A stretch of DNA of 43,700 bases from the IMG/VR virus record IMGVR_UViG_3300027896_000079, positions 1 to 43,700 of that record; one strand, given 5' to 3'. The DNA is from a virus. The translations under genes were made by a program, and so were the position numbers. The notes beneath the pieces were generated by a model that worked only from the letters and a program-made list of their open reading frames with translations, ran no database searches and had not been told where the DNA came from. The first letter of the stretch is position 1, and each line of letters starts with the position of its first letter. Shown here piece by piece: positions 1,678 to 34,200 of the stretch.

Positions 1678-2299
1678 CTGGTATTATTTCTGCGTCCTGT
1701 ATCGTAAGCATATCAAGATATTCCTTGGCAGGAGATTTCTCAATTATAGCATTGACTTTGGATTGTAGGTCTAAAAGTACATTTTGAGCCTTCTTATCGA
1801 TCTGTTTGAAATATGGGCCGTTGATAAAATTGAAGGTAAGGGAAAGCATCTGGATGGGTGGTTGTATCTTCGAAGGATCCGGAAGGTCGAAGTCGTCCCG
1901 ATCGACACCGGTGATTTTGATCAGGTTTGCAACCGCCCGGTTCATCTGGTCGATATCGGAAACGGATGCTGCTAATTGGTAATTCTTCATGGCCAGCTCA
2001 TAAAGGATGTATCGGGAAGCCTCTTTTTTGGTCTTAACCACATCGCCGAATAATTCGATAGCTGAGCGAAGATCCCGGTATGCTTGTGCCTGGGAATAAC
2101 TAAACTGACTCATGAGACGATCCTTGGCCTGCTCATTGGAATGGTATTTACACAGAAGCGTAAAGGCGGCCTCGAGTCGAATCCTTAAATCATCTTCAGT
2201 TTTACTGAGTTTGATTTGGTCATTGTCAAAATATTCACGGATCTTCTCCAACTTGGTGTCGAATTTCCTCGAGGTCGAATATCTATCTATATTAGACAT
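1667..2299 (-). CDS. probable terminase small subunit
   Basis: Predicted DNA-recognition partner of the large terminase, inferred mainly from position directly upstream and overlapping it. The 210-residue protein is mostly helical and charged, with an N-terminal region (about 25-90) that could form a helix-turn-helix-like bundle and a long helical middle. The C-terminal part has a short segment (QMLSLTFNFINGPYF) that could be the strand that docks to the large subunit. I see no catalytic motif. Start ATG at 2299 overlaps the upstream methyltransferase end by 8 bases. Family membership is not certain from sequence alone. Confidence 0.6.
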   Translation of the reverse strand: MSNIDRYSTSRKFDTKLEKIREYFDNDQIKLSKTEDDLRIRLEAAFTLLCKYHSNEQAKDRLMSQFSYSQAQAYRDLRSAIELFGDVVKTKKEASRYILYELAMKNYQLAASVSDIDQMNRAVANLIKITGVDRDDFDLPDPSKIQPPIQMLSLTFNFINGPYFKQIDKKAQNVLLDLQSKVNAIIEKSPAKEYLDMLTIQDAEIIPDGD

Positions 2300-3524
2300 T
2301 ATAAATCCTTTCTACTTTTAATTCCGGATCAAATTTCTTCATCCTGTCAATGATCATCTGGCAATATCGCGGATCTATTTCTCCCATTAAGCAGTTCCGG
2401 CCAAGTTGATGTGATGCCACCATGGTGGTTCCGGATCCACCAAAAGGATCATAAACGCTTTCTCCTTTCCGGGTATTATTTATGATCGGCTTTGCCATTG
2501 CCTCGATCGGCTTTTGGGTGCCATGTGAAGTCATGATATCTTCATTGGAATTGAAAACATTTAATCCCCGGATCTCCCAAACTGTACTCTGGTTCCTTCC
2601 TCCATACCAGTTGCTATTCTTTCCTTTTCTGACTGCATATAGGCAAGGCTCATGTTGCCAGTGATAATCTCCCCGGGAAAGAACGAAGGTGGATTTAACC
2701 CATATGATTTGGCTCCGCAATTCGAATCCACAATCTGCAATATCTTTCATAATAATATCCTGGAACCGAGAAGCATGCCAGATGTAGATCACATCTCCGT
2801 TAAATAATGAATAGGCACCGATCCAACTGGGAATATCATCATTGTTTACAACTCCATTTCTCTTACCATGGACCGCATTTATCTTGTCACGCCAGGTTGG
2901 ATCATAATTAACACCATAGGGAGGATCAGTGACCATCAGGATCGGCTTTTCATCGCCAATCAATTTCTGAACACATCCTGGGGTAGTGCTATCGCCGCAA
3001 ATCAACCGGTGTCGCAATCCCTTACCTGTTAATTCGAATAGATCCCCGGGAACAATGTCCGTTGATATTGAATTTACATCCGGAAGATCTTCATCTGGAG
3101 AGAGATCAGGTATTTCAACATATTTTAATGAACTTGGGAGATCATTAACATTCAATCCAAGTCCTTTAAGGTCAATATCATCGAAAATATCATTTAGCAT
3201 CTCCACGTTCCATAATCCGACCTGGATATTTGAGGTGACATTGTATTCCTTCAGCTCGGTTTCGGTAAGCATACGGTTTGGAACCCGGATATCGATCAGC
3301 TCTTCACCACGTCCCAGGAGTTTGAGTACCGTAATCCTCTGGTGACCGGCAATGATCATATTGTCCAGATTAATGGCCGGGATCTCCACCAAGTTAAATT
3401 TCTCTAATGACCGCTGCAGTTGATCCCGCTTTTTATCGGTCAATACCCTTGGATTATAAGCAAAAGGTATCAGATCGTCAACTTTGCGTTGCTCGGTTCT
3501 CCATTCAAGTGCCAACTCTGTCAT
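2292..3524 (-). CDS. ParB-like nuclease domain fused to DNA methyltransferase
   Basis: A 410-residue two-domain protein. Residues ~12-85 form a ParB/Srx-like N-terminal domain (AGHQRITVLKLLGRG is the typical phosphate-binding signature). The C-terminal half is an N6-adenine or N4-cytosine DNA methyltransferase with catalytic DPPY at 200-203 and SAM-binding FGGSGTT at 361-367. DPPY before FxGxG, with the recognition region between, matches the beta-class order. Such fusions are common in phages next to terminase genes and probably modify phage DNA against restriction. Start ATG overlaps the upstream stop as ATGA. The ParB domain's activity is unknown. Confidence 0.88.
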   Translation of the reverse strand: MTELALEWRTEQRKVDDLIPFAYNPRVLTDKKRDQLQRSLEKFNLVEIPAINLDNMIIAGHQRITVLKLLGRGEELIDIRVPNRMLTETELKEYNVTSNIQVGLWNVEMLNDIFDDIDLKGLGLNVNDLPSSLKYVEIPDLSPDEDLPDVNSISTDIVPGDLFELTGKGLRHRLICGDSTTPGCVQKLIGDEKPILMVTDPPYGVNYDPTWRDKINAVHGKRNGVVNNDDIPSWIGAYSLFNGDVIYIWHASRFQDIIMKDIADCGFELRSQIIWVKSTFVLSRGDYHWQHEPCLYAVRKGKNSNWYGGRNQSTVWEIRGLNVFNSNEDIMTSHGTQKPIEAMAKPIINNTRKGESVYDPFGGSGTTMVASHQLGRNCLMGEIDPRYCQMIIDRMKKFDPELKVERIYNV

Positions 3525-4243
3525 TTTCTTAATGCATTATCAATTTCATCAAATTCTATCTTGTATTTATCAAGTGTGTCCTGGTTCCTCTCCCGGACCT
3601 CGGGCGTCTTTGCGTCGTCTCTCAACCTGGTGTACCGGCTGATATAAGTCCGCAATGTCTGCCGGCGTGTCATCAATTCGGCGATATCCATCTCACTTAT
3701 CTTTTTGCCTTCTTCTTTCATCGGCGATGGTGGCAGGATTCCATGCTGATCAAAATGTCGTAATCGCTCATAATCTTTAGATATGTCATCAGATAGATCG
3801 AGTATTTTCAATGCATCTTTTAATCGTTGATCATCGGAAGGAAGATATTCAAGAATAGCATGAAGATTATCCCTTATTTTGAGCTTCATCCGGATCTCTT
3901 CAAATAACTTTTTTGCATCATCCTCCAATGGCCTGGTGCCGGTTTTTTCCATTTTTGGTTCAAAAACTGACTTTATGATCTTTGGTTCTGGTCCCGGGAC
4001 CGGTTTTCTGATCATTGGAGCGATTACCTGGCGCAGTGCCATTCCGGGCGTTTTAATTAACTTCCTGAGCTCATATTCCAGCAATTCCCTATTTCGCCGG
4101 CTGGCGCCGCCCTTATGGAACAACCTGATCTCATTTTTGCTGGTGCCATATAGCTCATAAATGGCGACACCTTCAAAAAAATCCTTTCCGGAATTAAGCC
4201 AAAGGTTAATTTTTTCAATCATTAAGAGATTGTTTTTGTTCAT
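3521..4243 (-). CDS. unknown charged helical phage protein
   Basis: I do not recognise this 240-residue protein. It is highly charged and mostly helical, with a proline-rich hinge (KPVPGPEPK) near residue 95 and a long coiled-coil-like C-terminal third. There is no signal peptide or membrane segment. It overlaps the methyltransferase start by ATGA and overlaps the upstream glycosyltransferase end by 29 bases, so it is part of the terminase operon. ATG at 4243 was taken, and an ATG at 4222 would reduce the overlap. A DNA-packaging accessory role is a guess from position. Confidence 0.7.
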   Translation of the reverse strand: MNKNNLLMIEKINLWLNSGKDFFEGVAIYELYGTSKNEIRLFHKGGASRRNRELLEYELRKLIKTPGMALRQVIAPMIRKPVPGPEPKIIKSVFEPKMEKTGTRPLEDDAKKLFEEIRMKLKIRDNLHAILEYLPSDDQRLKDALKILDLSDDISKDYERLRHFDQHGILPPSPMKEEGKKISEMDIAELMTRRQTLRTYISRYTRLRDDAKTPEVRERNQDTLDKYKIEFDEIDNALRK

Positions 4244-4922
4244 TTAAAAATTGATACCACTCAGGGGCCTTGCGATCAGGAGCAAAGGAGAAACCCTTTG
4301 GATGTGATCTATAATTCATCAATACCTCCGGCCGGTTATAGATAAGATAGCCAGCTTTGAGAAATTTGATCCAAAGAGCATAATCTTCAGCAAGGGTTGG
4401 TGGGATTTCTCCATAACCACCAACTCTATTTATTACTTCCTTGCGATAAGCAACTCCGGGATGATTAACGAACCAAAATCCGGATTCGGAACTCCGTGCA
4501 TATTCTTTAGTCACTTCCCCCGGATGGTGTGACAACCATTCTCGTTGAGTATTGAAAAGACGAATCTGTACCCCGCAGATATGCCGGTCGGGGAATCGGG
4601 TAAAGAAATCATTATGCATTTCAAGAAGATGGGGTTGAGCAATATCATCCGCATCCATTCTTACAATCAATTCATTACTGCAAAACCGCAGGCCGTAATC
4701 CAGGGCATATGCGATTCCGGCATTGTGATCTGTGCGAACTATGCTCAGGCAGCAATCCTTCTTTATTTCATAGAGATAATCGGTCAGCTCCCCTTTCGGG
4801 TTATTATCGTCTACAATTATGAATTGGAAATCCTGATATGTTTGATTCAGAATGCTATCAACGGCTTCTTTTACCCAATCTAATTGGGTGGCATAAATGG
4901 GCATAAGTACGGAGATCTTCAT
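4215..4922 (-). CDS. family 2 glycosyltransferase
   Basis: A GT-A fold sugar transferase using a nucleotide sugar. The 235-residue protein opens with the classic MKISVLMPIY strand, followed by a helix with SILNQTYQDFQFIIVDD, and carries a DxD metal site at RMDADD near residue 88. The later ED in LAEDYALW near 170 fits the catalytic base position of GT2 enzymes. It is short but complete. It is the last of three consecutive sugar-modifying genes. The substrate could be phage structural protein, modified DNA, or host surface glycan, and the sequence does not say which. Confidence 0.85.
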   Translation of the reverse strand: MKISVLMPIYATQLDWVKEAVDSILNQTYQDFQFIIVDDNNPKGELTDYLYEIKKDCCLSIVRTDHNAGIAYALDYGLRFCSNELIVRMDADDIAQPHLLEMHNDFFTRFPDRHICGVQIRLFNTQREWLSHHPGEVTKEYARSSESGFWFVNHPGVAYRKEVINRVGGYGEIPPTLAEDYALWIKFLKAGYLIYNRPEVLMNYRSHPKGFSFAPDRKAPEWYQFLNEQKQSLND

Positions 4923-4923
4923 T

Positions 4924-6987
4924 TCACTGGTTTCTTTTCGGTTGTCTTTTTAGTTTGGATTTTTTCTCTACAATCTTTTTAAATGCAGCCAGGGATATAT
5001 CATTTATAATTGTCTTTCTATTGGCATCGAATTTTTTGAAATCATAATATGGGTGTGGTTCGGTTGTGGGGATCTCCGGGAAAGGGTCCCGGGTTGTTGC
5101 CTCCCCATGGAAGATAATACTGATCCCATTGCCCTCATCATCGGGCAGGGTAAGGGTATAGAGTTCAAATCCAAAATCCTTCATGCGCATGATATCAACA
5201 AGGGTCCTGAAGGCAGTACCACACCGGTCCTCTTTGGTGTACCGTTCGTTCTTGGGATTAGTATCATGCATTACGATACATCCGTTTTTGCGGATAAACC
5301 GGGATGCATTGGTAAGGTCCCAGGTAACCTGTTCGTGATTATGATCACCATCGATAAATATCATATCCCATTCATAGTTCCCTGCAGTAAGCATTTTAAA
5401 GAAATTGTCTGAGGTCATTAAAAAATCCGGTTTTTTTTCATGGGCTATCACTGGGTCAACGGCCTTCTTGTTTTCACAATTGATGTTGTAAAATGTGTCT
5501 CCGTCGCGAAGGCCGATCTCAAGGTAGTCTTTATATCCCATGGTTTTGATGATCCAGTTCATTACCGCATTACGACTCATTTCTTTTTTATTCGGAGCTA
5601 TGGCCTTAATTAATTCCTGGTCTTTCATGTCAGCATGATGGATCCGTTTGAAATATGCATTATCATAAAGGTTGCCCGGAAGGATATCCGGCTTGATCCT
5701 ATGCACCCGGCATATAACCGGAAGTGAAAGCTGATCCTGCCATGTGAATTTGATATTTTCATGCCACCAACTCATCATCAGGGCCCGGACCCGGGTAGTT
5801 GGTTTACGGACAATTACCGTACAAGCATAAAGACCTGCACCAGCCGGATGGAAAGATTTATAATATTCCGCTTGTTCATGAATGGCTTCATTGCGGTATT
5901 TAACCATGATCTCTGATGCTTTTACTTCATCATAGATGCAATTTCTTTCCGGATGGGCAAAAAGAGCTATATCTGTTTTTAAATTCTGAATACAGAATTC
6001 AACAAAAAAAGCTGAATTAATCTGGATACAACCATCAAGAAAGATGATAATATCATATTCGTTCAATTGATTTATTTCCCATGGAAAGATTTTATACCAT
6101 TTGGCACGCATTCTGGGATGCAAGTCAGTCCGGGGTTGTATTGCTTTGATAATCTTCCAGGATTCATCGGTGTTTTTAAAGTCCTTTTCAATAATTTCCG
6201 ATGGTGCATCTGTGATGCAAAAGAAATTGGCCGGAATATTTTGTTTTGGAACCGCCAGCAACCGGTCGTACCCTCCAAAAATGGTGGTATAAACTGCTAT
6301 TTTCATTTTATGATTTTTAAAGATCCATAATTCAGGCAATATTTTTTTTTTCCAATCTGGTCCGAAGATCCTTCGCATTCCGTTATCCATTTCCTGGTTC
6401 GCCTTATTCGAATAATTTTGAATAGTTCCAATAGTCTTTATGGTTCCATGCCCAATATGCCGAAAGCAACTTCCGTCATCGGCAAACATCCGGATCCCCT
6501 TCTTCATACATCGCCAGGAAAATTCAAAGTCCACGCCGGATCCAAGATTGAAATGTTCGTCAAACATTCCTGCTATTTTAAATGTATTTCGTGTGATTAC
6601 CGGGGCCGTGAGTTCGATACATCTTACCTGGCGGACACCATTCGTGAAATGATTGCGAAGTTGATCCATCCAGGAATTAAATGATGGCGTCAGAAAATCA
6701 TATAATCCGGTATCCATCAATGCCTGGATCCTATCGATGCAATTATGATCAATCACAATATCGCTATTCATGAGCCAGAATGCTTCGAATTCTTTCCATA
6801 ATGCTTTTATGGCCCGGTTCCAATTGCGCGTAAATCCAAGATTATCCTTAAACCTGATCACCTGGTTGGGGATATTAAACTTATCGCCCGATCCGTTGTC
6901 GATGATGATGGATCCTGGCACCATCCTGGCAAGATCCATGGTCATGCCTGGCGTTTTATAGTGAAGTATGAATTTACCAATGATCAT
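4924..6987 (-). CDS. three-domain protein: glycosyltransferase, DUF616-like glycosyltransferase, SAM methyltransferase
   Basis: A 687-residue fusion. Residues 1-~222 resemble a GT2-type transferase (IIIDNGSG, then LMNSDIVID as the DxD-like site, and a late GSGVDFEFSWR). A new start-like sequence, MKIAVYTTIFGGYD, opens a second domain at ~228 with features of DUF616/TOD1-type transferases (FLDGCIQI, HPERNCIYDE). Residues ~465-640 form a class I methyltransferase (DYLEIGLRDG, then DMIFIDGDHNHEQV and CIVMHDT), like Methyltransf_24 enzymes. The C-terminus is basic. It overlaps the upstream gene as ATGA. Together the domains suggest building and methyl-capping of a glycan in one polypeptide. Confidence 0.8.
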   Translation of the reverse strand: MIIGKFILHYKTPGMTMDLARMVPGSIIIDNGSGDKFNIPNQVIRFKDNLGFTRNWNRAIKALWKEFEAFWLMNSDIVIDHNCIDRIQALMDTGLYDFLTPSFNSWMDQLRNHFTNGVRQVRCIELTAPVITRNTFKIAGMFDEHFNLGSGVDFEFSWRCMKKGIRMFADDGSCFRHIGHGTIKTIGTIQNYSNKANQEMDNGMRRIFGPDWKKKILPELWIFKNHKMKIAVYTTIFGGYDRLLAVPKQNIPANFFCITDAPSEIIEKDFKNTDESWKIIKAIQPRTDLHPRMRAKWYKIFPWEINQLNEYDIIIFLDGCIQINSAFFVEFCIQNLKTDIALFAHPERNCIYDEVKASEIMVKYRNEAIHEQAEYYKSFHPAGAGLYACTVIVRKPTTRVRALMMSWWHENIKFTWQDQLSLPVICRVHRIKPDILPGNLYDNAYFKRIHHADMKDQELIKAIAPNKKEMSRNAVMNWIIKTMGYKDYLEIGLRDGDTFYNINCENKKAVDPVIAHEKKPDFLMTSDNFFKMLTAGNYEWDMIFIDGDHNHEQVTWDLTNASRFIRKNGCIVMHDTNPKNERYTKEDRCGTAFRTLVDIMRMKDFGFELYTLTLPDDEGNGISIIFHGEATTRDPFPEIPTTEPHPYYDFKKFDANRKTIINDISLAAFKKIVEKKSKLKRQPKRNQ

Positions 6988-7739
6988 ATTTCAAACCTTG
7001 ATTTTTCCGGGAACCGGCGCATAAGGAATTCCTTCAGGTTTTCGTTTAATCCCGCATCATTATGATTCAGATATATCATTCCTTTACATTTTACCTCCAG
7101 GTCGCCGGTGGAAGAAGTATAATATTCTCCATCCCGGTTATTATAAAACTGGATCCCCCGGCAATCTTTGAATAATACCGGATCTTGGTCGGAGAATAAA
7201 GTGTTATAATAGAGTGTTGAAGTAAGAAGGCGCCGGTCCAGCGCTTTATAGTTTTCAATTATCCATTTCATTTTATCCCGGTCAAATAATTCCGGAAAAT
7301 GAGTCTCGGTATTCCATCCCGGATATCCCTTGGATCTGACAGCATCAACCGACCGGTATAATTGTCCCCACCATTTCTCAAATCTCTTTGGAATTTTATC
7401 AAAGGAATATATTGCCTTAAACTTACCGATCTCCAAAAGGTCAATATTATCCAGCAAATAGATATCATCATACATCCGGATGAATTGCTCTCCGGAATTT
7501 GGATGATTAAGGTAAAGAAGGAGTTTCTGTATAGCATCAAAGACGGAATTTTCCGGCATTCCTTCACACCGCTTATGATTTATGAAATAAATTTTATCGA
7601 GATTAAGCCATTCGGGGAGATCACCAACAATCCATAACCGGAATTCTATTTTCAGGTATTTTTCTAAAGATCGGATTGAATATCGGAGTTCTTCCCAGGT
7701 GGCCTCCTTTTGAAAATAAGGATAGTAAACATCAATCAT
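6984..7739 (-). CDS. Stealth-like sugar/sugar-phosphate transferase
   Basis: The 251-residue protein has the pattern of Stealth-family capsule polysaccharide phosphotransferases: a start with YSIRSLEKYLKIEFRLWIVG, then PEWLNLDKIYFINHKRC, and an acidic FIRMYDDIYLLDN motif near residue 92. The family transfers hexose-1-phosphates, but the specificity here is unknown, and a general GT-A assignment is the alternative. It is the first gene of the sugar cassette. Its ATG lies four bases after the promoter box ending at 7744, so the mRNA is predicted to be leaderless. Confidence 0.65.
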   Translation of the reverse strand: MIDVYYPYFQKEATWEELRYSIRSLEKYLKIEFRLWIVGDLPEWLNLDKIYFINHKRCEGMPENSVFDAIQKLLLYLNHPNSGEQFIRMYDDIYLLDNIDLLEIGKFKAIYSFDKIPKRFEKWWGQLYRSVDAVRSKGYPGWNTETHFPELFDRDKMKWIIENYKALDRRLLTSTLYYNTLFSDQDPVLFKDCRGIQFYNNRDGEYYTSSTGDLEVKCKGMIYLNHNDAGLNENLKEFLMRRFPEKSRFEI

Positions 7740-12221: not shown

Positions 12222-12533
12222 TTAAGTAAAAATATATCTGTCATTTTCTTCAATAATAGTAGTCGTAAAAGGGAATCCGGTTACCGGTATTTGTTGAATC
12301 ATTTCGATTAATGGTCCGGAAGAAGTAAATAATATATGCTTTATATCATTGATTGAGATTTGTAGATGCAGACATTTGTCAGCGCCTCTTTCCCGGAATG
12401 CCTGAACCTTTGATTCCTCAATCTTATGATCATGAATAATGATTTCCTTCCCCAGGATCTTCGAGATCTTGATCTTGTCACCGACAAAACTCTTCGCCGT
12501 TACAGTAATGCCGAATTGGTTAAAGTTGTTCAT
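12222..12533 (-). CDS. small beta-rich protein translationally coupled to the DGR reverse transcriptase
   Basis: A 103-residue protein whose ATG (12533-12531) overlaps the RT stop as ATGA. A longer frame from 12581 would overlap RT by about 50 bases and was not chosen. The sequence is beta-strand rich (FGITVTAKSF, KCLHLQISIND, HILFTSSGPLIE, PFTTTIIEENDRYIF), so an OB-like or ssDNA-binding fold is plausible, unlike the four-helix Avd accessory proteins. The tight coupling suggests a role in mutagenic retrohoming or in the same regulatory unit. Function is not known to me. Confidence 0.75.
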   Translation of the reverse strand: MNNFNQFGITVTAKSFVGDKIKISKILGKEIIIHDHKIEESKVQAFRERGADKCLHLQISINDIKHILFTSSGPLIEMIQQIPVTGFPFTTTIIEENDRYIFT

Positions 12534-13480
12534 GCATACAATTTTTTCATTAAATGTTTGCCATTGCAATGTTTGGCCCATCCTTTATATGATGCAATCG
12601 ATGCCGGGTTCCTGTTCCGGGCCAGCATCCTGGCAAAGTTCTGTTTGATGGTTTTGCGCAGGCGTGTATGCGTATGGAAGAAAACATACCCTAAAAAATC
12701 TATTCCCCTGGCATCCACCGGGTAAACCTGATAGTTGTCTTTCACTGTAAGTTTTAATTGCTCCTGCAGGTATTTGGTGATATCGGACAAGATCTGATGC
12801 AGGTAGGTTTTATTTCCGGCCATGATCACCAAGTCATCAGCATACCGGAAATAATATTTTACCTTTTTCTCCTCTTTGATCCAGTGGTCAAAATAAGTGA
12901 GATAGAAATTTGCAAAATATTGACTCAGATAATTGCCGATCGGAAGTCCATCGGTGCTATCGATGATCTCATCCAAGAGCCATAGAAGATCCTGATCTTT
13001 TATTTTCCTTCTTAGGAGTTGTTTTAAGATGGCATGATCAATGGATGGATAGAACTTGCGGACATCCATCTTTAAACAAAATTGTGTGCCTGAGATATCC
13101 TTGAGCGCGCATTTCACGGCATTGGCCGCCGCGTGGATCCCGCGACTTTTTATGCAACTATATGTATCAACTGTGAATGTGGATATAAACAGCGGCTCCA
13201 GGATATTCATCACCGCATGGTGCGTGATCCGGTCCGGAAAATATGGAAGTCGGTAGATGATCCTTTCCTTTGGTTCATAGATTGAAAAGGTGGTATATTC
13301 AGAAGTTTTGTAGGTCTTGTTTAACAGCATCTCATGAAGTAACCGGATGTTTCTCTCCCGGTTCTTGTCATGGAAGATAATGCCAGGCTGTTTCAACTTG
13401 CCTTTTCTGGCAATCTTATCTGCCAACTTGAGATTTTCGATGCTGCAGATCTGATGATATAAATTCCCTTTTCTTTTCAT
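12530..13480 (-). CDS. diversity-generating retroelement reverse transcriptase
   Basis: Error-prone RT that copies the template repeat RNA, misincorporating at adenines, for transfer into the variable repeats. The protein has 316 residues from the ATG at 13480 (MKRKGNLYHQICSIEN, the usual DGR RT start). A GTG at 13534 and an ATG at 13513 are alternatives. Motifs, numbered from 13480: KMDVRKFYPSID at 137-148; IGNYLSQ at 181-187, the DGR signature in place of the QGxxxSP of group II intron RTs; catalytic YADD at 213-216; DFLGYVFF later. It lies just downstream of the template repeat. The domain layout is complete, with no frameshift. Confidence 0.95.
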   Translation of the reverse strand: MKRKGNLYHQICSIENLKLADKIARKGKLKQPGIIFHDKNRERNIRLLHEMLLNKTYKTSEYTTFSIYEPKERIIYRLPYFPDRITHHAVMNILEPLFISTFTVDTYSCIKSRGIHAAANAVKCALKDISGTQFCLKMDVRKFYPSIDHAILKQLLRRKIKDQDLLWLLDEIIDSTDGLPIGNYLSQYFANFYLTYFDHWIKEEKKVKYYFRYADDLVIMAGNKTYLHQILSDITKYLQEQLKLTVKDNYQVYPVDARGIDFLGYVFFHTHTRLRKTIKQNFARMLARNRNPASIASYKGWAKHCNGKHLMKKLYA

Positions 13481-13580
13481 TGTGCCTTTGCTGTTAAAAG
13501 ATCGTTTTCCCATCGGTACCAACGCTCTTTTCACTATCGTGATTTTTTGGCATGTTGCCAGGGTCTATGCTGCTAAAATA

Positions 13581-13661
13581 GCTTAGGTGAGAGCTGACAT
13601 TCGTATTCGTATTATCGTAGTTGTAATTCGAATTCGAAAAGTCGAACCTGGACCTGGCCGA
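13581..13661 (-). repeat. DGR template repeat (TR)
   Basis: An 81-bp template on the RT-coding strand, read from 13661 down to 13581. It contains 24 adenines, many in AAY triplets in the frame used by the targets (six Asn codons). Variable repeats at 13776-13856 and 14206-14286 match it without gaps except at adenines. It sits 42 bases after the first target gene and about 100 bases before the RT start, the classic target-TR-RT order. Confidence 0.96.
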
Positions 13662-13703
13662 CCGAACTATCAGCTGATGCAGCATACCACCGGAGAATTT
13701 CAT

Positions 13704-14120
13704 TTACAGAAAGAACTTCTTATATTGCTCATTGAACTGCTTAAAAATATACAACGCCTTTTCAGATGAATCTGTGCAAAGGCGAGAGCCGACATCCGTA
13801 AACGTATAACCGCAGTAGTAATACGAATCCGAAAAGACGAACCCGGACCCGGCCGAATTAACTTGTCCCCAGGGATAATATTTCCACTGGCTCCTGTTTG
13901 TGAAGTCGGCCTTCCATCCATCATTTATTGCTTCGAAAATGACGAATAGTTCATAAACTGCAAGCCATGCCGCCCGGAATCTTGGTGGAATAATTGCTGG
14001 TAGGTCCTTTAGTTTAGGACGTTCAAGTTTTTGCTTTTTGAAAGCATCATTAATGGTCTTTATCGATTTGTAATCGAATGGGGTCTTGACCTTCCTGGTA
14101 GATTTTGTTTCCTTTTTCAT
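13704..14120 (-). CDS. DGR target protein 1
   Basis: A 138-residue protein carrying the nearest variable repeat at residues 89-115. The preceding WKYYPWGQVNSAGSGF and following VGSRLC sequences match the second target, so the two are paralogous. The variable residues alternate with fixed Phe, Tyr, Ser and Thr, which suggests a C-type-lectin-like display surface. A ~23-residue helix follows the variable segment, so the repeat is not at the very end. The N-terminus is Lys-rich and there is no signal peptide. It is far from the tail genes. Its ligand and whether it is a virion protein are unknown. Confidence 0.88.
   Translation of the reverse strand: MKKETKSTRKVKTPFDYKSIKTINDAFKKQKLERPKLKDLPAIIPPRFRAAWLAVYELFVIFEAINDGWKADFTNRSQWKYYPWGQVNSAGSGFVFSDSYYYCGYTFTDVGSRLCTDSSEKALYIFKQFNEQYKKFFL
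13763..13774. other. hairpin just after variable repeat 1
   Basis: CAGA-TGAA-TCTG, a perfect 4-bp stem with a 4-base loop, begins two bases beyond the 3' end of the variable repeat. A hairpin or cruciform at this place is known to aid retrohoming in studied DGRs. The second target shows only a 3-bp equivalent. Confidence 0.45.
13776..13856 (-). repeat. DGR variable repeat 1 (VR1)
   Basis: 81 bp aligned to the TR without gaps. There are 16 differences, all at TR adenines (replaced by G or T). The last 18 bases in the sense direction are identical to VR2, including four shared changes from TR, as expected for a fixed initiation-of-homing segment. Confidence 0.96.
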
Positions 14121-14124
14121 GATT

Positions 14125-14598
14125 TTACTTATTAATGGTTAAAAGTTCCCTGTGAATTTCAATAAACTGCTTTCCAAAATAATCTGCCAGCTCTTGAGTA
14201 GGAAAGCAAAGGCGAGAGCCGACAGTCGAATCCGTAATAACGTAGACGTAAAACGAACCCGAAAAGTCGAACCCGGACCCGGCCGACCATTGAAACCAAG
14301 GATACCATTTTTTCTCATTTCTATCATTCCAGTTTGGTTCCCATTCGCCCCGGAGAACTTTTGCAATTAATTTCAGCTTTTTATAGGCTATTTCATCCAA
14401 AGTATCTGATGAATGATAAACATCATCAGGAAATACCCCAACCTCAATGCAAGCATCTTCAAAAGTTTTTATCCGGTCCATAATATTGTCGGAAAAAAAA
14501 TCTTCTCCAAATTTTTCCATAAGGATTTTCTGAAACCATTTAGGGACATCCTTAAATAGCTTCTTTGCTGTGGGTTTTTCAAGGTTCAATGTTTCCAT
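14125..14598 (-). CDS. DGR target protein 2
   Basis: A 157-residue paralogue of target 1, with the variable repeat at residues 105-131 followed by FPTQELADYFGKQFIEIHR, a probable C-terminal helix. The conserved flank WYPWFQWSAGSGFDF and the closing VGSRLCF frame the diversified part. The N-terminal ~90 residues are unlike those of target 1 in detail (KDVPKWFQKILMEKFGEDFF). The next gene starts 4 bases after its stop. No signal peptide or membrane segment. Binding function is inferred only from being a DGR target. Confidence 0.88.
   Translation of the reverse strand: METLNLEKPTAKKLFKDVPKWFQKILMEKFGEDFFSDNIMDRIKTFEDACIEVGVFPDDVYHSSDTLDEIAYKKLKLIAKVLRGEWEPNWNDRNEKKWYPWFQWSAGSGFDFSGSFYVYVITDSTVGSRLCFPTQELADYFGKQFIEIHRELLTINK
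14206..14286 (-). repeat. DGR variable repeat 2 (VR2)
   Basis: 81 bp aligned to the TR without gaps. There are 17 differences, all at TR adenines (to G, T and once C). VR1 and VR2 differ from each other at 14 positions, again only at TR adenines, so each has diversified independently. Confidence 0.96.
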
Positions 14599-14624: not shown

Positions 14625-15437
14625 TTAAAATATTGTCTTTTGTGGTAAATCGTAATTCCAGACTAATACCTCAAATTTTTTTCGGTCATTCTTCCGCATT
14701 CCTTTATTATTGAATGTGTGAGTAGAACTGTGCCATTTGTTTTTCTCAATATATTCCTGCAACATTTCGCTATGGTAATTACTGATGAGAAACTTCCCTT
14801 TGCATGTTTCACACCATTGTAACAGCTTTTCAAATTCATCAAAAGAATATCCCTTATAGTGTCCTTGGTCAGCATTTGGATATGGTGGATCAATATAATG
14901 GAAGGCATCTTTAACATTTCTTGATTCCAGAACCTGGAGAGCGTCCCTATTTTCAATAATGACAGATTCTATTCTTTTTACTATTTCCATTGTGAAAGCA
15001 TCCTTATTCCTTTTCATTACCGCAGGAGGTAATGTGCCCTGATCATTCGAATATTTAAGCCCCCCCCCGATCTTATTTCCATAACTTGAATTGCTGCACA
15101 TCCAGAATGCCCATGCCACATCAACTTCTAAAAATAAATTCTTGTTTTTTATTATCAGAAGCGCCCTATCGTGTAGGGTTCTTGAAAAACAAGTGGATTG
15201 TATTTTCAGATTCAACTCTTCAAAATTTGTTTTTAATTGTTGATAAAAATTAATGACAATATCAAGGATGTCATTTATGGTTTCATTTTTTGCTGGTGAT
15301 TTGGCAAAAAGTAATGCACCACCTCCGAAGAATGATTCAGTATATACTTTATGTTGTGGTATCATAGGTAGAATGATGGGAAGCATGGATGTCTTGCCAC
15401 CATAATAAATAATCGGAGATCTCATAATTCCATTCAT
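14625..15437 (-). CDS. D12-class adenine DNA methyltransferase (Dam-like)
   Basis: Transfers a methyl group from SAM to adenine N6 in DNA. The 270-residue protein has an N-terminal IIYYGGKTSMLP motif, SAM-binding ESFFGGGALLF near 34-44 and catalytic DPPY near 178-181 (HYIDPPYPNADQGHYKGYS), the order and length of the D12/Dam class. The ATG overlaps the upstream stop as ATGA. It lies just before the DGR targets and probably protects phage DNA or times replication. The recognition site cannot be read from the sequence. Confidence 0.9.
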   Translation of the reverse strand: MNGIMRSPIIYYGGKTSMLPIILPMIPQHKVYTESFFGGGALLFAKSPAKNETINDILDIVINFYQQLKTNFEELNLKIQSTCFSRTLHDRALLIIKNKNLFLEVDVAWAFWMCSNSSYGNKIGGGLKYSNDQGTLPPAVMKRNKDAFTMEIVKRIESVIIENRDALQVLESRNVKDAFHYIDPPYPNADQGHYKGYSFDEFEKLLQWCETCKGKFLISNYHSEMLQEYIEKNKWHSSTHTFNNKGMRKNDRKKFEVLVWNYDLPQKTIF

Positions 15438-20587: not shown

Positions 20588-20679
20588 TAGCGCCGGCAAG
20601 GATCGGACTTGCGCTCTCCAGGTTATGAAAGTAACTTACGAAAAATTGCCCTGGCGTGTTACCTCTGCACTACGGCGCA
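20588..20679 (-). tRNA. tRNA-like gene with CAU anticodon loop and a 20-base insertion
   Basis: Read leftward: acceptor GCGCCG (20678-20673) pairs with CGGCGC near the end; TA at 8-9; D arm GTG/CAC with A14, GG and A21; anticodon stem CCAGG (20654-20650) with CCTGG (20622-20618); variable loop AGAGC; T arm GCAAG/CTTGC with a 7-base loop. The loop between the anticodon-stem arms is 27 bases instead of 7. Its last seven, TTCATAA (20629-20623), form a normal loop with anticodon CAU, preceded by an extra 20 bases (20649-20630). Position 1 would be a U-U mismatch and no CCA is encoded. Intron-bearing tRNA, decayed tRNA, or a non-decoding tRNA mimic are all open. Confidence 0.6.
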
Positions 20680-23214: not shown

Positions 23215-25809
23215 TTAATTTTTTACTAATGATATAGCACTTATTGAGAAATTACAGGTGCTTGGGGTTTCAATCACAAAATTACCCTCCGTATAATTTA
23301 CGGATACTGTTAATGTAACAGTATGTGTCCCTGATGTCATTACAAAATCATTTGATTTTTTAGCTAATGTTACACCCCTCCCTAAATAACAGTAATATAC
23401 ATTTCCACTATTAACAGTAGCAGTATAGGTAAGTGTGTATGTTTCTCCGATGTAAAGTGGGCCGATATTATTAGTATAACAAGCTCCTCCCCCGGTAGTA
23501 TTTATTGCAGAATTTATTACTGAACCGGTTGATGTAAAAGTTTCAAATGGATAAGCCGATAGGTTTGTCCAACTTAATATCCTTTCTGGGTTTACCGGTG
23601 CAGAATAGTTGTATGCTCGTATAGCCCGTACACTTACTTTAGAGGTGGCTTTTGTGCTTTGTTGCATGTCAGATGATACAAAAGATAATGCCCAATTTTT
23701 ATCATAGGATGCTTCTGACGATGAATGATACCAGTCTCCTATGAATCCCCCAATAGCTGTTTTATGCAAATACATCTGGGCTAATTCGTCTTTCGATGGC
23801 AAAAACCAATCGGTATATCCATTCAAAGTAAGGGTGTCACATAGGTAAGCTGCTATTGCTGTCGTTTTACAACCTTTTAAAATTTCCGCAGTATTGGATA
23901 CTCCTGTGCCAATAGTTGTTGATGTAAATGGAATTGAAAATGTTTCACAACCCCATACGGCAGATGCACTTTGGTCGTGGGTTGCAGCAATTAATCCGCT
24001 AAGTCCATCAGTTGATGTATAGAACACTATTCCCCCACCGTAGGAATCCCCAATTTCGGGAAAAGTTGCTCGACCCTTTAACCCGATATAAAAATATTTA
24101 AACGAGGGTGTCCCGTCAAATTTCATCCAAATGGTGTTACCGCAAGGAATCACGGGATTGTTTAACGCATATTTTTTTGTTACCACTCCCTTTGTTGTTA
24201 CCGTTGTTTGTGTAACCACCAAAGATTTTCCGGTTGCCGTTTCGTTAGTACCCCAACATATACGTGGTTTTCCTGTGGGCGATGTCGCATTTGAGCCTAT
24301 CTTAAAAATTAAGGTATCATAAGTTTCACCGGATGAGTACCCTAATATATGAACACTATCTGCCATTTGAATTGTATCTATATTTATTTCATGTAAAACC
24401 CTCATTGCGTCAAGCGGAGAATACGTTTTATTGGCATACAAAACTGAAACTAACGGCCCTTCTGCCAGAAGGGTATCTTCAGGAAATATAATATTATTTT
24501 TGAAAAAATTGATCACGGTTTGATGGGTACTTAATTGAGAAAGAACGACCCCAAAACCCACCCTGTTACCATTGTAATGAATCACTGACGGGTAACCATA
24601 ATTAGAAAGAACATTCACGGTATGTGGGGCACTCCATATTGTTGGACTGTCTAATAATTTTGTTGCGTCTGCATAGCGGTAACGAAAACTTTGGTATCCA
24701 AATCCTACTGTGTTTCTATAGTAGCAAACGACAACAGGGGCGCCATTGGGAGGATAAACCAAATTCAGCCAAGGGCTGATTAAATCTCCATTTTCAAAAT
24801 TAGTTATTCCTTGATTAGTCCAAGATGCACCATTATCTTCGCTTTTAAATTGATAAAAATTAAACGGAGTGAGGTCATCTCTTGATATTGCAATTATTGA
24901 ATTTCCGCCGATATATAATACATCAAACTCACTAAGCCATCGCAAACCCGAATAAACAGTGACATCGCCTCCCCATGTAGTACCATTATCTGTTGAAAAT
25001 ATCACATGAAGCTCATAATCCATTTCCGGCGCACTTCCGTTTTGAATGTAATAAGGCATCATCAGTTTGCCCCCCCCAATGGGTATCATTTTGCCGTAAG
25101 GAGCATAAAGAGCAGATGTTCTGGGATGAGGAAGTGTTCTATAAGTTGACCAAGTTTCGCCTTGATCGTCAGAATATATATAACCCCAATCAATATCTAA
25201 ACTTGTTGTGAAATTAAACCTGCGAAAAAACAAAACAAACCTTTCGGTTGGCGTTAATCCACCGGCAGGATTGTTGTCAAGATATGGAGAATTGTATACG
25301 GTAGTTGTGTCTGACCATGTATTTCCATCTGTGATGGATTTTCGTTTTACAATCCCACCCCTATTGTCTCCCCCATCAGAATGTCCATGAAAATATACAT
25401 ATAGCAATTTCCCATTTAAATATCGACCTAAAACCCCATAACCGTCAAAAGTTGTATCAGGTAATGCACCTGGATTTAAGGGACTCCATGATGATTTGTC
25501 TGTATTTACCTCCGATTTGAGATCATAACTTGACATCCCTGTCTGAGTTTGAAAATATAGACTTCCAGATAAAGTTAGCCAACCCTGAGCAAGAGCATAA
25601 GCAAAGGTTTGTGTCTTGGTTACCGCATGGGTTAATTGATAATGTGCCCTCCGTGCCTTATTATAAATTACCGTTGCAGAATCCAGACCGGTTCCTCCAA
25701 ATGCGGCGGCATCATTCTTCACCTGCCATTCGGTTAAGGTTGTTTGGGCGAAAAGGGCGATCGGGAAAATAAACCCGATCAAAATCAATAAAATTTTTTT
25801 TGTTTTCAT
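23215..25809 (-). CDS. exported sialidase-like protein with Asp boxes and a DUF1566-like domain
   Basis: An 864-residue protein from the ATG at 25809 (MKTKKILLILIGFIFP ... FAQ, a signal peptide). Asp boxes (SxDxGxxW) occur at about residues 158, 213, 272 and 323 (SITDGNTWS, SDDQGETWS, STDNGTTWG, SEDNGASWT), typical of BNR/sialidase propellers. A DUF1566-like module follows near 600-740 (GGGIVFYTS ... GYTDWFLPSKDELAQMY ... VSVRAIRAY), then a beta-sandwich C-terminus. Position at the end of the tail module suggests a fibre or glycan-cleaving tip, yet the signal peptide suggests secretion by the host cell. Catalytic residues of true sialidases are not evident. Confidence 0.8.
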   Translation of the reverse strand: MKTKKILLILIGFIFPIALFAQTTLTEWQVKNDAAAFGGTGLDSATVIYNKARRAHYQLTHAVTKTQTFAYALAQGWLTLSGSLYFQTQTGMSSYDLKSEVNTDKSSWSPLNPGALPDTTFDGYGVLGRYLNGKLLYVYFHGHSDGGDNRGGIVKRKSITDGNTWSDTTTVYNSPYLDNNPAGGLTPTERFVLFFRRFNFTTSLDIDWGYIYSDDQGETWSTYRTLPHPRTSALYAPYGKMIPIGGGKLMMPYYIQNGSAPEMDYELHVIFSTDNGTTWGGDVTVYSGLRWLSEFDVLYIGGNSIIAISRDDLTPFNFYQFKSEDNGASWTNQGITNFENGDLISPWLNLVYPPNGAPVVVCYYRNTVGFGYQSFRYRYADATKLLDSPTIWSAPHTVNVLSNYGYPSVIHYNGNRVGFGVVLSQLSTHQTVINFFKNNIIFPEDTLLAEGPLVSVLYANKTYSPLDAMRVLHEINIDTIQMADSVHILGYSSGETYDTLIFKIGSNATSPTGKPRICWGTNETATGKSLVVTQTTVTTKGVVTKKYALNNPVIPCGNTIWMKFDGTPSFKYFYIGLKGRATFPEIGDSYGGGIVFYTSTDGLSGLIAATHDQSASAVWGCETFSIPFTSTTIGTGVSNTAEILKGCKTTAIAAYLCDTLTLNGYTDWFLPSKDELAQMYLHKTAIGGFIGDWYHSSSEASYDKNWALSFVSSDMQQSTKATSKVSVRAIRAYNYSAPVNPERILSWTNLSAYPFETFTSTGSVINSAINTTGGGACYTNNIGPLYIGETYTLTYTATVNSGNVYYCYLGRGVTLAKKSNDFVMTSGTHTVTLTVSVNYTEGNFVIETPSTCNFSISAISLVKN

Positions 25810-25820
25810 TATCAAAAAGA

Positions 25821-26096
25821 TTAAAGGTTTATAAATTGAAATTCTTTCCATTCATACGCATCCGAATCATTTTTTATACAGATATAAAATGAATCAGCTA
25901 CACCCGTATCCCCAAGTAACTGTAGTTGCCTGCCGCGATAACCAACTCCCGGAGCAGGTAAATCTGTGACCGGGATAATGGTCTGTAACATAGCGGGAGT
26001 ACATTTTTTTGTTGCACCACCCTGTACGATCGGGACTAATTCTGTTCCATCCAGAGCGGTTGCTACCGGATATTTGGAATCTGATATTTTTGCCAT
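25821..26096 (-). CDS. small fibre-like phage protein
   Basis: A 91-residue protein with the tail-fibre-type start (SKYPVATALDGTELVPIVQGG ... TKKCTPAMLQ). Its C-terminal half shares a module with the 169-residue protein at 26547: FYICIKNDSDAYEWKEFQF against FYICLKN ... YYWKEIQL. It is a probable short fibre or fibre-assembly protein in the tail-tip operon. Confidence 0.65.
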   Translation of the reverse strand: MAKISDSKYPVATALDGTELVPIVQGGATKKCTPAMLQTIIPVTDLPAPGVGYRGRQLQLLGDTGVADSFYICIKNDSDAYEWKEFQFINL

Positions 26097-31282: not shown

Positions 31283-34200
31283 TTAATTTGTTTTTGATGC
31301 ATCTTTTTTAATCTGATCAACCTTACCTATTTCTTCCATTAAATGATCATAAGAGAGATATGCAGGTGTTTTTATTTTTGAATTTTTATTAAATTCCTTT
31401 AAGGCGGCTAATAGTTCCGGATCCTTCAAATAAATAATTTTATCACTTGAAATTGAAGATTTAGAAGATGAAGGATAATTGCCGCCTGTAAATTGTGGTA
31501 CCCGCGCAAAATTTATAGCATTCAGAATCCATGGGAAGTTCATCTGAAGATTTTTAATTGTAGGTGCATCGACAACCAATTCGGGACCGGCCTCAGAAAT
31601 AAGGGTGGGTTTGGCCAGGATTCCTTTTTTTGAAGGATTGATATAATTTATTTCTGATGATCTTTCATCATCCTGATCAATAACCTCATATTTACCTTTT
31701 GCAGATTCCCGGATCTTGACCCTTTCAATAATATTCAAGACTTCCGGGAAGTTCTCCTGTAAATTTTTTGTCGTCCTCGCATCTATAATTAATATAGGAC
31801 CTTCCTCCGATATTAAAGTTGGTTTTTCATAGATTCCTGTCTTTGGCTTTCCGCTCCATTCTGCTGAATAGGTTTTTCCATCATCCTGACCAATCACATT
31901 ATATTTACCATCTGCAGATTGCGGAACCCTGGCCTTTTCAATAATCTCCAATACCTCCGGGAAATTCTCCTGCAGATTCTTGGTCGTTTTGGCATCTATA
32001 ATCAGTTCGGGACCCTCTTCCGATATCAGGGTTGGTTTATCATAGATCCCCGTCTTTGGCTTACCGCCCCAATCTGCAGAATAAGTCTTGCCATCATCCT
32101 GGCCAATCACATCATATTTACCTTTTGCTGCAGCGGGAACTGGGGTGGCAATCAAGACAGCCAATTGAATTGCATCCATTGCTGCGACAATTATTGGCAT
32201 GACAATATCTGCAGGAGGAGCAATATTTGAAGCCTGGATAATGGCTTGCAAAAGTGCAATGGTGGCATTAAAAATAGCTAATTCTTTTTGTCGGACCGCC
32301 TGGTCATGTGCGACTTTCCTTTTTTTAGCATCAGCCTCCTCATCCATTTTAGCAATAGCATCATCATATTGCTTCTGGGTGATTTTCTTGGAATCTAATT
32401 GTTTTTTTAAATTATCTTTCTTTTTATTATTAGCATCCTCATCTTTTTGTAATCCCTGGTTTTCAATCTCATTTTGAGCATTAAAAATGGAGGATAATGC
32501 CCCAATGGCCACCTGGGCCATTTCCAAAAGAGATTTAAGCTCCTTTGCGCGTTCTTTTCCCAGGGATTTATAAAAATCACCCCAAATCTTTTCCTGGGAA
32601 TCAGCAGCATCTTTTGCAGATTTTTTCTTAGCAATAGAAATTTCTTTATCAATTTTTAATTCGGCATCACGCTGTGCTTCGAGTAGTTTGCGTTTACCGG
32701 CCATATCAAGATCACCAAATTGATCGGCCCCTGATCGGGATGACATAGTTCCTGATTCGGCCTGATTCAATAATTCCTGATTTTTTAGCGCATATTTTAA
32801 TATTATTGCCTGCCTATCCTTTTCAGTAAGTTCAGTATTAGCAAGTTCAGCATCTTCCTGCTCTTTCAACCATGCCTGGCTGTCAATTAACCATTGAGTC
32901 GAACCTATTTTATCAGCCTTGATCTTTTCGGTCCATTTATCAGTTTCGGCTTTATTATCTAATGTTTTTTTGAGTTGTCTATATTTTTCCTCAATATCTT
33001 TTATTTGTTGCTCAGTAAGATTAGCATTGCTGAGCTCAATTTCCTTCATTTTATCGAGAAGAGTCTTACTATCTGCAAACCATTTTGCAGATCCATCGAT
33101 ATCAGCCTTGACGATTGCTTCCCATTTTTCTTTTTCAGTTTTTAAGGAATCCTCGATTTTCTTCTTATCATATTTCTGATTGATCTTATCCGCTTGTTGA
33201 TTTGCCAGGTCGATCAAAGAGGCACGCAGATCATTCTCCTGTTGCGAATTCCCTTTTATCTTATCAAGATCACGGACCAGATCAAGTTCAACCATCTTCA
33301 ATTCCTTCTCGCGCTCATCCTGGATCAATTGAATAAGACTTTCTTCTAGTTTTTTCCTTATATCAAGAAGGAATTTCGAATAAGTTTCCGCTTTATGAAC
33401 TAATTCCTTCTGGCTTTTATCATCTATACCCGCGATTTCATTTGTAACTGTTGCTTTTTGTTTTAGCATCCGGCGGGTTGACATATTATATTCATTTTCA
33501 ATATCAGATATGTTCTTTTCGGCACCCATTAATCCACTTATAACTTTTGGTATACCAGTGGCCTCATCTATTTTTCCACCAATTTTGTAAAATTCACTTA
33601 CCTTTTTTGCCAATTCTTTATGAAATCCGGTCGTTTGCTCTGCTGCGGTTGTTAATTTCTTATATCCTGCAACTTCTACCTCTAATTGACTTTCACGGGT
33701 TTCGTTTCTTTTAGTTCTTGCATCTTTGAGATTTAATTCTGCCTGGTTTAATTTTTCGAGGTTCTGATTATAGAATTTATAATATTCACGCTCATCAGCA
33801 TTCATATTAGCGATTTCTAATGCTTCCTTTGCTTTTAATTGGATATGAACAGTAGCCTGATTGAATGCTGTATTTGCGGTGAGTTCCTGTTGTTTGGCCA
33901 CCTTAATATCATTATCCATTACTTCATGCATCAAATCAAGATATTTTTGGATTGCTGTCAGTTTATCTTCTTTTGATGTGGCAGTATAAATATCCTGGTA
34001 TAATGATGTTGCTTCGGCCCTTAATTTTGAATTTTTTAGAGAATTAGTAAGGATCATTAAATTAAGTTTTTCCTCCTGTTCAACAAGATCCTTTGCTAAA
34101 CGACTCGCAGTTTGAAAATTGGTAAAGATATTTGACCAATCCCCGGTATTTATACTTATAAACAATGAATCAAATCCCGCTTTCAATCCCTCAATTGTTC

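What the first reader, a model, noticed from the sequence alone, without database searches (positions are those of the whole stretch)
12222..14598. Two-target diversity-generating retroelement in the phage
Seen: an 81-bp template (13581-13661) and two gap-free variable repeats (13776-13856, 14206-14286), all in the same frame. All 16 and all 17 differences from the template fall at its 24 adenines. The RT has IGNYLSQ and YADD. Known: adenine-specific mutagenic retrohoming is the hallmark of DGRs. The two targets differ from each other at 14 positions, so both have been diversified separately.
Basis: partly seen in the sequence, partly recalled or inferred. Interest (0 to 1): 0.88.

Follow-up and report, generated by a model that had tools for sequence, protein, structure and literature searches.

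The report
Two-target mutation cassette with new helper
This phage carries a real self-mutating cassette that rewrites two of its own small genes at adenine positions. Its family lacks the usual helper protein and instead carries a small, previously undescribed (as far as I could check) partner of the copying enzyme, plus an RNA fold that closes around the template.

Summary
It is a diversity-generating retroelement (DGR). Near-identical contigs of relatives differ almost only inside VRs, at template adenines and in different VRs independently, so the family is active. Two-target DGRs are already known. What is less ordinary: (1) the two targets are distinct paralogues kept as a pair across Bacteroidota phages and prophages; (2) there is no Avd and no BPP-1-type hairpin after the VRs; (3) a 103-aa protein (phrog_19665, "ACC"), overlapping the RT stop codon, accompanies the RT in 133 of 136 testable loci, is fused to the RT in hankyphage and, separately, within this clade, and was found beside or fused to a DGR RT in 7 of 7 strong hits from about 1,190 sampled genomes; (4) covariation supports a structured RNA whose long-range helix closes the TR. 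ACC's model is OB-like; its only significant structural matches are phage RTs, followed at weaker scores by phage SSBs. Best reading: an Avd-less DGR whose RT works with a dedicated OB-like domain, probably handling cDNA. That role is inferred. Wu et al. 2018 could not be read and may already list this accessory.

The parts
14125..14598 (-). Target gene A (157 aa), helical N-terminal domain plus C-terminal variable segment
   Evidence: ORF; phrog_11581 E 2e-25; paralogue clade A; AF2 model: N-terminal helices pLDDT ~95, variable segment ~50
14206..14286 (-). Variable repeat 2, in target A
   Evidence: 17/17 mismatches at TR adenines
13704..14120 (-). Target gene B (138 aa), paralogue of A, TR-proximal
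   Evidence: ORF; phrog_11581 E 3e-20; paralogue clade B
13776..13856 (-). Variable repeat 1, in target B
   Evidence: 16/16 mismatches at TR adenines
14208..14221 (-). IMH-like 3' signature of VR2 (CGGCTCTCGCCTTT)
   Evidence: fixed G/G/T where the TR has A, conserved over 79 distinct DGRs
13778..13791 (-). IMH-like 3' signature of VR1
   Evidence: as above
13581..13661 (-). Template repeat, 24 adenines
13583..13596 (-). IMH*-like 3' end of the TR (CAGCTCTCACCTAA)
   Evidence: A in 72/79, 71/79 and 61/79 TRs at the three fixed columns
13680..13691 (-). 5' arm of RNA helix P1 that closes the TR
   Evidence: covariation
13562..13572 (-). 3' arm of RNA helix P1
   Evidence: 6 of 11 pairs with changes on both sides
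13548..13560 (-). RNA hairpin P2
   Evidence: 2 of 4 pairs with changes on both sides
13499..13528 (-). RNA hairpin P3 in the spacer before the RT start
   Evidence: 7 of 9 pairs with changes on both sides
12530..13480 (-). DGR reverse transcriptase (316 aa from the conserved ATG; frame open from 13534)
   Evidence: phrog_1423 E 6e-122; RVT_1 E 5e-17; PDB 8ub7 E 2e-41; IGNYLSQ, YADD
12222..12533 (-). ACC: 103-aa DGR accessory protein, start codon overlapping the RT stop (ATGA)
   Evidence: phrog_19665; next to RT in 133/136 loci; fused to RT in hankyphage and in L196; OB-like model

Best explanation
This is an active-type, Avd-less DGR of a tailed phage of Bacteroidota. The minus strand carries, in order, target A, target B, TR, RT and ACC. 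The TR lies in a structured RNA: a long-range helix (P1) brings the two ends of the TR together and two hairpins (P2, P3) follow. The RT makes adenine-mutagenised cDNA from the TR, and the cDNA replaces either VR. The fixed TR-A versus VR-G/G/T signature at the 3' end marks the VRs as recipients and the TR as donor (IMH against IMH*). ACC is a dedicated RT partner, separate here and a C-terminal RT domain elsewhere. It takes the place that Avd has in BPP-1, probably by binding the template RNA or the single-stranded cDNA through an OB-like barrel. Shown: repeats, A-bias, DGR RT, RNA helices, exclusive association and fusion of ACC with DGR RTs, and VR-only variation in relatives. Inferred: nucleic-acid binding by ACC, its equivalence to Avd, the donor/recipient role of the 3' signature, and the use of the diversified targets as binding proteins.
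For: TR/VR statistics. RT identity. Near-identical contigs of relatives that differ only at TR-A in one VR or another. Conserved two-target layout with paralogue clades A and B. ACC adjacent to RT in 123 loci by the first profile and near the RT in 10 more on closer search; the next commonest neighbour family is in only 37 of 131 loci. One ACC per genome, at the DGR, in 14/14 genomes, and 7/7 strong non-seed hits in about 1,190 sampled Bacteroidota and Bacillota genomes beside or fused to a DGR RT. RT-ACC fusions in hankyphage, BT-TP2 and BS-TP4, apparently LoVEphage, and within this clade in L196. ACC model pLDDT 90; its only significant viral structure matches are two phage RTs, with phage SSBs among the next. 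No Avd in the record, with BPP-1 Avd as positive control for the model. RNA covariation.
Against: No solved structure matches ACC at E <= 0.001, and SSB similarity is only at E around 0.01, so nucleic-acid binding is not shown. This phage itself has no near-identical relative in the collections, so its own activity is not measured. The record is a metagenomic contig without bacterial flanks, and an Avd elsewhere (host or missing part) cannot be excluded. ACC may be unnecessary for retrohoming. Loci were gathered by RT similarity and include near-duplicates, so they are not all independent.
Confidence: 0.78

Rival explanations
1. ACC is a phage gene with its own job (for example a replication SSB or a regulator) that merely travels next to the DGR, and the DGR needs only RT and RNA.
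For: No biochemical evidence links ACC to retrohoming. L157 and L158 have DGR RTs without a detectable ACC.
Against: Neighbours other than RT, targets and ACC are not conserved. ACC is fused to the RT in two separate lineages. Strong ACC hits were not found away from a DGR RT.
Confidence: 0.12
2. This is a BPP-1-type DGR whose Avd is supplied from elsewhere, and ACC is an add-on.
For: Avd is essential in BPP-1 (PMC12875486). The contig has no host flanks.
Against: No Avd in the record. None of 158 VRs in the clade has the GRNA-loop hairpin that BPP-1 needs, although the same scan finds it in BPP-1. Avd-less DGRs are known in the crAss lineage (PMC7290462).
Confidence: 0.08
3. The cassette in this particular phage is a fossil: the VRs were diversified once and the system is now silent.
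For: No sister contig of this phage was available, so no current variation could be seen. Many near-identical contig pairs of relatives show no VR difference at all.
Against: RT, ACC, both targets and the RNA are intact and close to the family consensus, and relatives with the same layout vary now.
Confidence: 0.12
4. The two targets are subunits of one hetero-oligomer, so one template diversifies two faces of one binder, giving combinatorial diversity.
For: A and B are separate paralogue clades kept together as a pair. Two targets are fused into one ORF in L150 and L111.
Against: Some loci have three or four targets or distant extra ones. A few A/B assignments do not follow the two clades. 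No complex was modelled and no interaction was tested.
Confidence: 0.2

Closest known systems
BPP-1 (Bordetella phage) DGR
   Same: RT of the DGR type, TR/VR with adenine-only differences, TR next to RT, 3' IMH/IMH*-like distinction, structured spacer RNA before the RT
   Different: No Avd. No GRNA-loop hairpin after the VR (0/158; BPP-1 control positive). Two small targets with no detected similarity to Mtd. ACC present. Any BPP-1 counterpart of the P1 helix was not established.
Avd-less lineage-3 DGRs, e.g. crAssphage LMMB (PMC7290462)
   Same: Target-TR-RT order, no avd, RT 50% identical, IGNYLSQ
   Different: LMMB diversifies one large tail-collar fibre gene and has no phrog_19665 hit; its RT has a C-terminal extension that might be a diverged ACC (not shown)
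Hankyphage (Bacteroides phage p00) DGR
   Same: Its so-called Avd ORF is DUF4376. Carries the ACC domain, fused to the RT C-terminus (residues 327-433, phrog_19665 E 3e-18). Activity detected in cultures (PMC12135933)
   Different: One very large target and a distant RT; ACC is fused, not separate
Two-target gut phage DGRs with tentaclins (PMC10743442)
   Same: One TR diversifies two target genes
   Different: There the two targets have different architectures (Ig-domain tentaclin and C-lec protein). Here they are small paralogues; no Ig domain, no C-lec fold recovered

Membership tests
Diversity-generating retroelement | TR/VR pair whose mismatches fall at TR adenines | tested here: met
   16/16 and 17/17
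Diversity-generating retroelement | Adjacent RT of the DGR clade, with [I/V/L]GxxxSQ | tested here: met
Diversity-generating retroelement | Variation in populations concentrated at VR adenine sites | tested here: inconclusive
   Met in near-identical contigs of relatives; not measurable for this phage itself
Diversity-generating retroelement | IMH in VR versus non-identical IMH* in TR | tested here: met
   conserved three-position TR-A/VR-G,G,T signature over 79 DGRs; function inferred
[quoted passage not shown]
   No PDB profile or fold match; variable segment modelled at pLDDT ~50
BPP-1-type DGR with Avd | Avd (PF22296 / PF05635) | tested here: not met
   no match in the 43.7-kb record at E <= 10; BPP-1 Avd control E 7e-36
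BPP-1-type DGR with Avd | GC-rich hairpin with GRNA loop after the VR | tested here: not met
   0/158 VRs; BPP-1 control found
phrog_19665 (ACC family) | Profile match over its whole length | tested here: met
   window E 1e-6, 74 of 75 family members match
OB-fold single-stranded DNA-binding proteins | OB barrel similar to known SSBs | tested here: inconclusive
   OB-like strand-strand-strand-helix-strand-strand order; SSB matches only at E about 0.01; no PDB match at E <= 0.001
OB-fold single-stranded DNA-binding proteins | Binds ssDNA or RNA | not testable with these tools
   needs protein
[quoted passage not shown]
   targets are 138 and 157 aa, no Ig domain
Accessory gene of Wu et al. 2018 that has no Pfam/CDD entry | Sequence identity with that family | not testable with these tools
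   paper not held; its existence is known only through PMC10053308

The most novel reading that the evidence does not exclude
A small OB-like protein, encoded beside the DGR reverse transcriptase or fused to its C-terminus, is the general substitute for Avd in a large Avd-less DGR lineage that includes hankyphage. It acts with a template RNA whose ends are clamped by a conserved long-range helix. This would be a second, separately evolved way of building the DGR retrohoming complex.
Probability: 0.5. Interest if true: 0.8.

Novelty: new variant of a known kind. Interest (0 to 1): 0.6.

Why it matters
In BPP-1, cDNA synthesis needs Avd, and roughly a quarter of DGRs lack it (PMC7290462); how those work is open. 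A DGR-specific domain that is separate in some phages and fused to the RT in others, together with a covarying template RNA, gives a concrete and testable answer. It also explains the long C-terminal part of the hankyphage RT. If confirmed it supplies a compact RT-ACC-RNA set for targeted hypermutation in Bacteroidota, and a profile and RNA pattern for finding Avd-less DGRs.

Tried and rejected
PDB fold and profile searches for ACC gave nothing significant, and none for the target. A free-energy duplex test of the TR-flanking arms was too permissive to discriminate and was replaced by an aligned pair count. The idea that the targets are tail fibres was not supported: no tail similarity, and the cassette sits among variable neighbours. 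The idea that the cassette carries the BPP-1 VR hairpin was rejected. Direct folding of the window RNA alone is weak (z -1.5); the support is comparative. The identity between TR and VR at non-A columns was dropped as evidence because the repeat finder requires it. Weak phrog_19665 hits L200 and L202 (E about 4e-4) have no RT nearby; L202 lies in a ParB-like gene and L200 shows no related gene, so both are taken as chance.

Full report
CHECK. On the minus strand the TR (13581-13661) and the two VRs (13776-13856 in target B, 14206-14286 in target A) align without gaps. All 16 and 17 differences fall at the 24 TR adenines (chance 2e-11 and 3e-12), and the VRs differ from each other at 14 sites. 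No third VR exists in the record. The record is a 43.7-kb virus contig.

RT. The RT matches phrog_1423 (E 6e-122) and best matches PDB 8ub7 (E 2e-41; I take this 328-aa entry series to be the BPP-1 RT from general knowledge), well ahead of group II RTs. In a tree with BPP-1, hankyphage and crAss DGR RTs it lies on their side of a fully supported branch against three group II RTs, and it has IGNYLSQ and YADD. The outgroup is small and several branches are long. The alignment of 25 relatives shows an invariant ATG at window 13480, so the upstream GTG start is probably not used.

ACTIVITY. No contig near-identical to this phage was returned. Relatives L099-L104 are near-identical contigs from different samples. 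L103 and L104 differ at 13 sites, all at TR-A in one VR, and at none of 5,842 other positions. L101 and L103 differ at 12 TR-A sites in another VR and at 1 of 6,783 others. L102 and L103 differ at 24 VR sites, 22 of them TR-A, and at 1 other. So cassettes of this family diversify now, and their targets do so independently.

TWO TARGETS. Almost every complete relative carries target A (~155 aa) and target B (~135 aa) ahead of the TR, with offsets of about 610 and 195 bases. With the VR columns removed, A and B sort into two paralogue groups (6 and 5 label changes against 33 in shuffles; the tree has few columns and is weak inside). Some loci have three or four targets, and L150 and L111 have two fused. 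Two-target DGRs as such are known (PMC10743442; PMC6642488). The target model has a well predicted helical N-terminal domain and an unresolved variable segment. No C-type lectin match was obtained, so that fold is only inferred from other DGRs.

ACCESSORY. The ORF at 12222-12533 begins in an ATGA overlap with the RT stop. It matches phrog_19665 (unknown function), as do 74 of 75 family members, and no Pfam family. It was found beside the RT in 123 of 139 loci, overlapping the RT in all but one. A closer search found it in 10 more: near the RT, about 1.3 kb after it, or just before it. Three loci end too early to tell, leaving three without it (L157, L158, L161). The commonest other neighbour family is in 37 of 131 loci, so this is not general synteny. 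Searched genome-wide, it is present once per genome and beside the RT in 14 of 14 genomes. In samples of 396 and 395 Bacteroidota and 399 Bacillota genomes, the 7 strong non-seed hits were all beside or fused to a DGR RT. Two weak hits (E about 4e-4) had no RT and are taken as chance.

FUSIONS. The hankyphage RT contains the domain at residues 327-433 (phrog_19665 E 3e-18) and BS-TP4 at 387-496 (E 2e-18). BT-TP2 has it too, and in LoVEphage the ORF that holds the RT's C-terminal part continues into it. Within the window's own clade, L196 carries RT and ACC in one frame. At least two fusions therefore seem to have occurred. The small hankyphage ORF called Avd in the literature on size and charge (PMC6199706; PMC12135933) is a DUF4376 protein, while the BPP-1 Avd control scores E 7e-36.

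FOLD. ACC is modelled at pLDDT 90 with strands and one helix in OB order. Foldseek gives no PDB match at E <= 0.001. Among predicted viral structures the only two significant matches are phage reverse transcriptases. Six of the top 50 are annotated single-stranded-DNA-binding proteins and two more are RTs.

RNA. RNAalifold on 25 relatives gives a helix P1 joining the two flanks of the TR, a hairpin P2 and a hairpin P3. Over 24 pairs 97.3% of cells pair, 15 pairs have changes on both sides, and there are 49 such cells against 12.6 in shuffles (0/500); slid controls pair 37-47%. P1 can be read in 91 of 104 distinct DGRs, including some with distant RTs; 65 distinct helix sequences pair at 94% against 73% (maximum 78%) when partners are shuffled. 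Rfam has no match at its gathering thresholds.

TR/VR SIGNATURE. At three columns near the 3' end the TR keeps A (72, 71 and 61 of 79 distinct DGRs) where the VRs have G, G and T in nearly all. A TR with those bases would never damage the target, so the conserved A is probably useful. The natural reading is the IMH/IMH* distinction known from BPP-1. Unlike BPP-1, no VR here has a GRNA-loop hairpin downstream (0/158, BPP-1 control found), and no Avd is present.

VERDICT. The ACC partner, the lack of Avd and VR hairpin, and the TR-closing RNA helix make it a variant. Its mechanism is inferred, and its novelty is subject to Wu et al. 2018, which could not be read and which, according to PMC10053308, names one accessory protein without a Pfam entry.

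Noticed in passing
L185:2523-3827 and 3824-4309 (hankyphage): The RT has a C-terminal ACC domain. The neighbouring small ORF that papers label Avd is a DUF4376 protein.
   Followed up: yes
L196 (Bacteroidia genome G482): RT and ACC of the window's own clade are fused into one open frame.
   Followed up: yes
L150:6928-7785; L111:3577-4425: Two target domains, each with its own VR, fused in one ORF.
   Followed up: partly
L015, L075, L107, L102, L136: Three or four VRs per cassette, some 4-6 kb away from the TR.
   Followed up: partly
L083:5977-6588, L084:5893-6501, L085:5890-6519, L183:4944-5528 (LoVEphage): Target-family proteins with no detected VR or DGR nearby, lying among early-region genes; fixed relatives of the diversified targets.
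   Followed up: partly
L178:4004-5299 (crAssphage LMMB): RT has a ~70-aa C-terminal extension that looks like a diverged ACC by eye; profiles do not confirm it.
   Followed up: partly
L186:2799-4342 (LoVEphage): The RT appears split over several annotated ORFs, the last of which carries the ACC domain.
   Followed up: no
L177:4016-5041 (crAss cr52_1): Annotated RT has internal stop codons under the standard code, consistent with recoding.
   Followed up: no
23215-25851: Large protein among the tail genes with a C-terminal stretch similar to the adhesin Lcl; not a DGR target here, and a candidate for the real receptor-binding protein.
   Followed up: partly
4215-7739: Three consecutive genes that look like glycosyltransferase or polysaccharide genes, next to the putative capsid gene.
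   Followed up: no
2292-3524 and 14625-15437: A protein that looks like a ParB-type domain fused to a DNA methyltransferase, and a Dam-type methyltransferase directly ahead of target A.
   Followed up: no
20588-20679: tRNA-like match in Rfam (40 bits) that ARAGORN does not call.
   Followed up: no
31283-34561: Probable tape-measure protein with three copies of a ~50-aa repeat (GKYxVIGQDDGKTYSA...KPTLISEEGPELIID).
   Followed up: no
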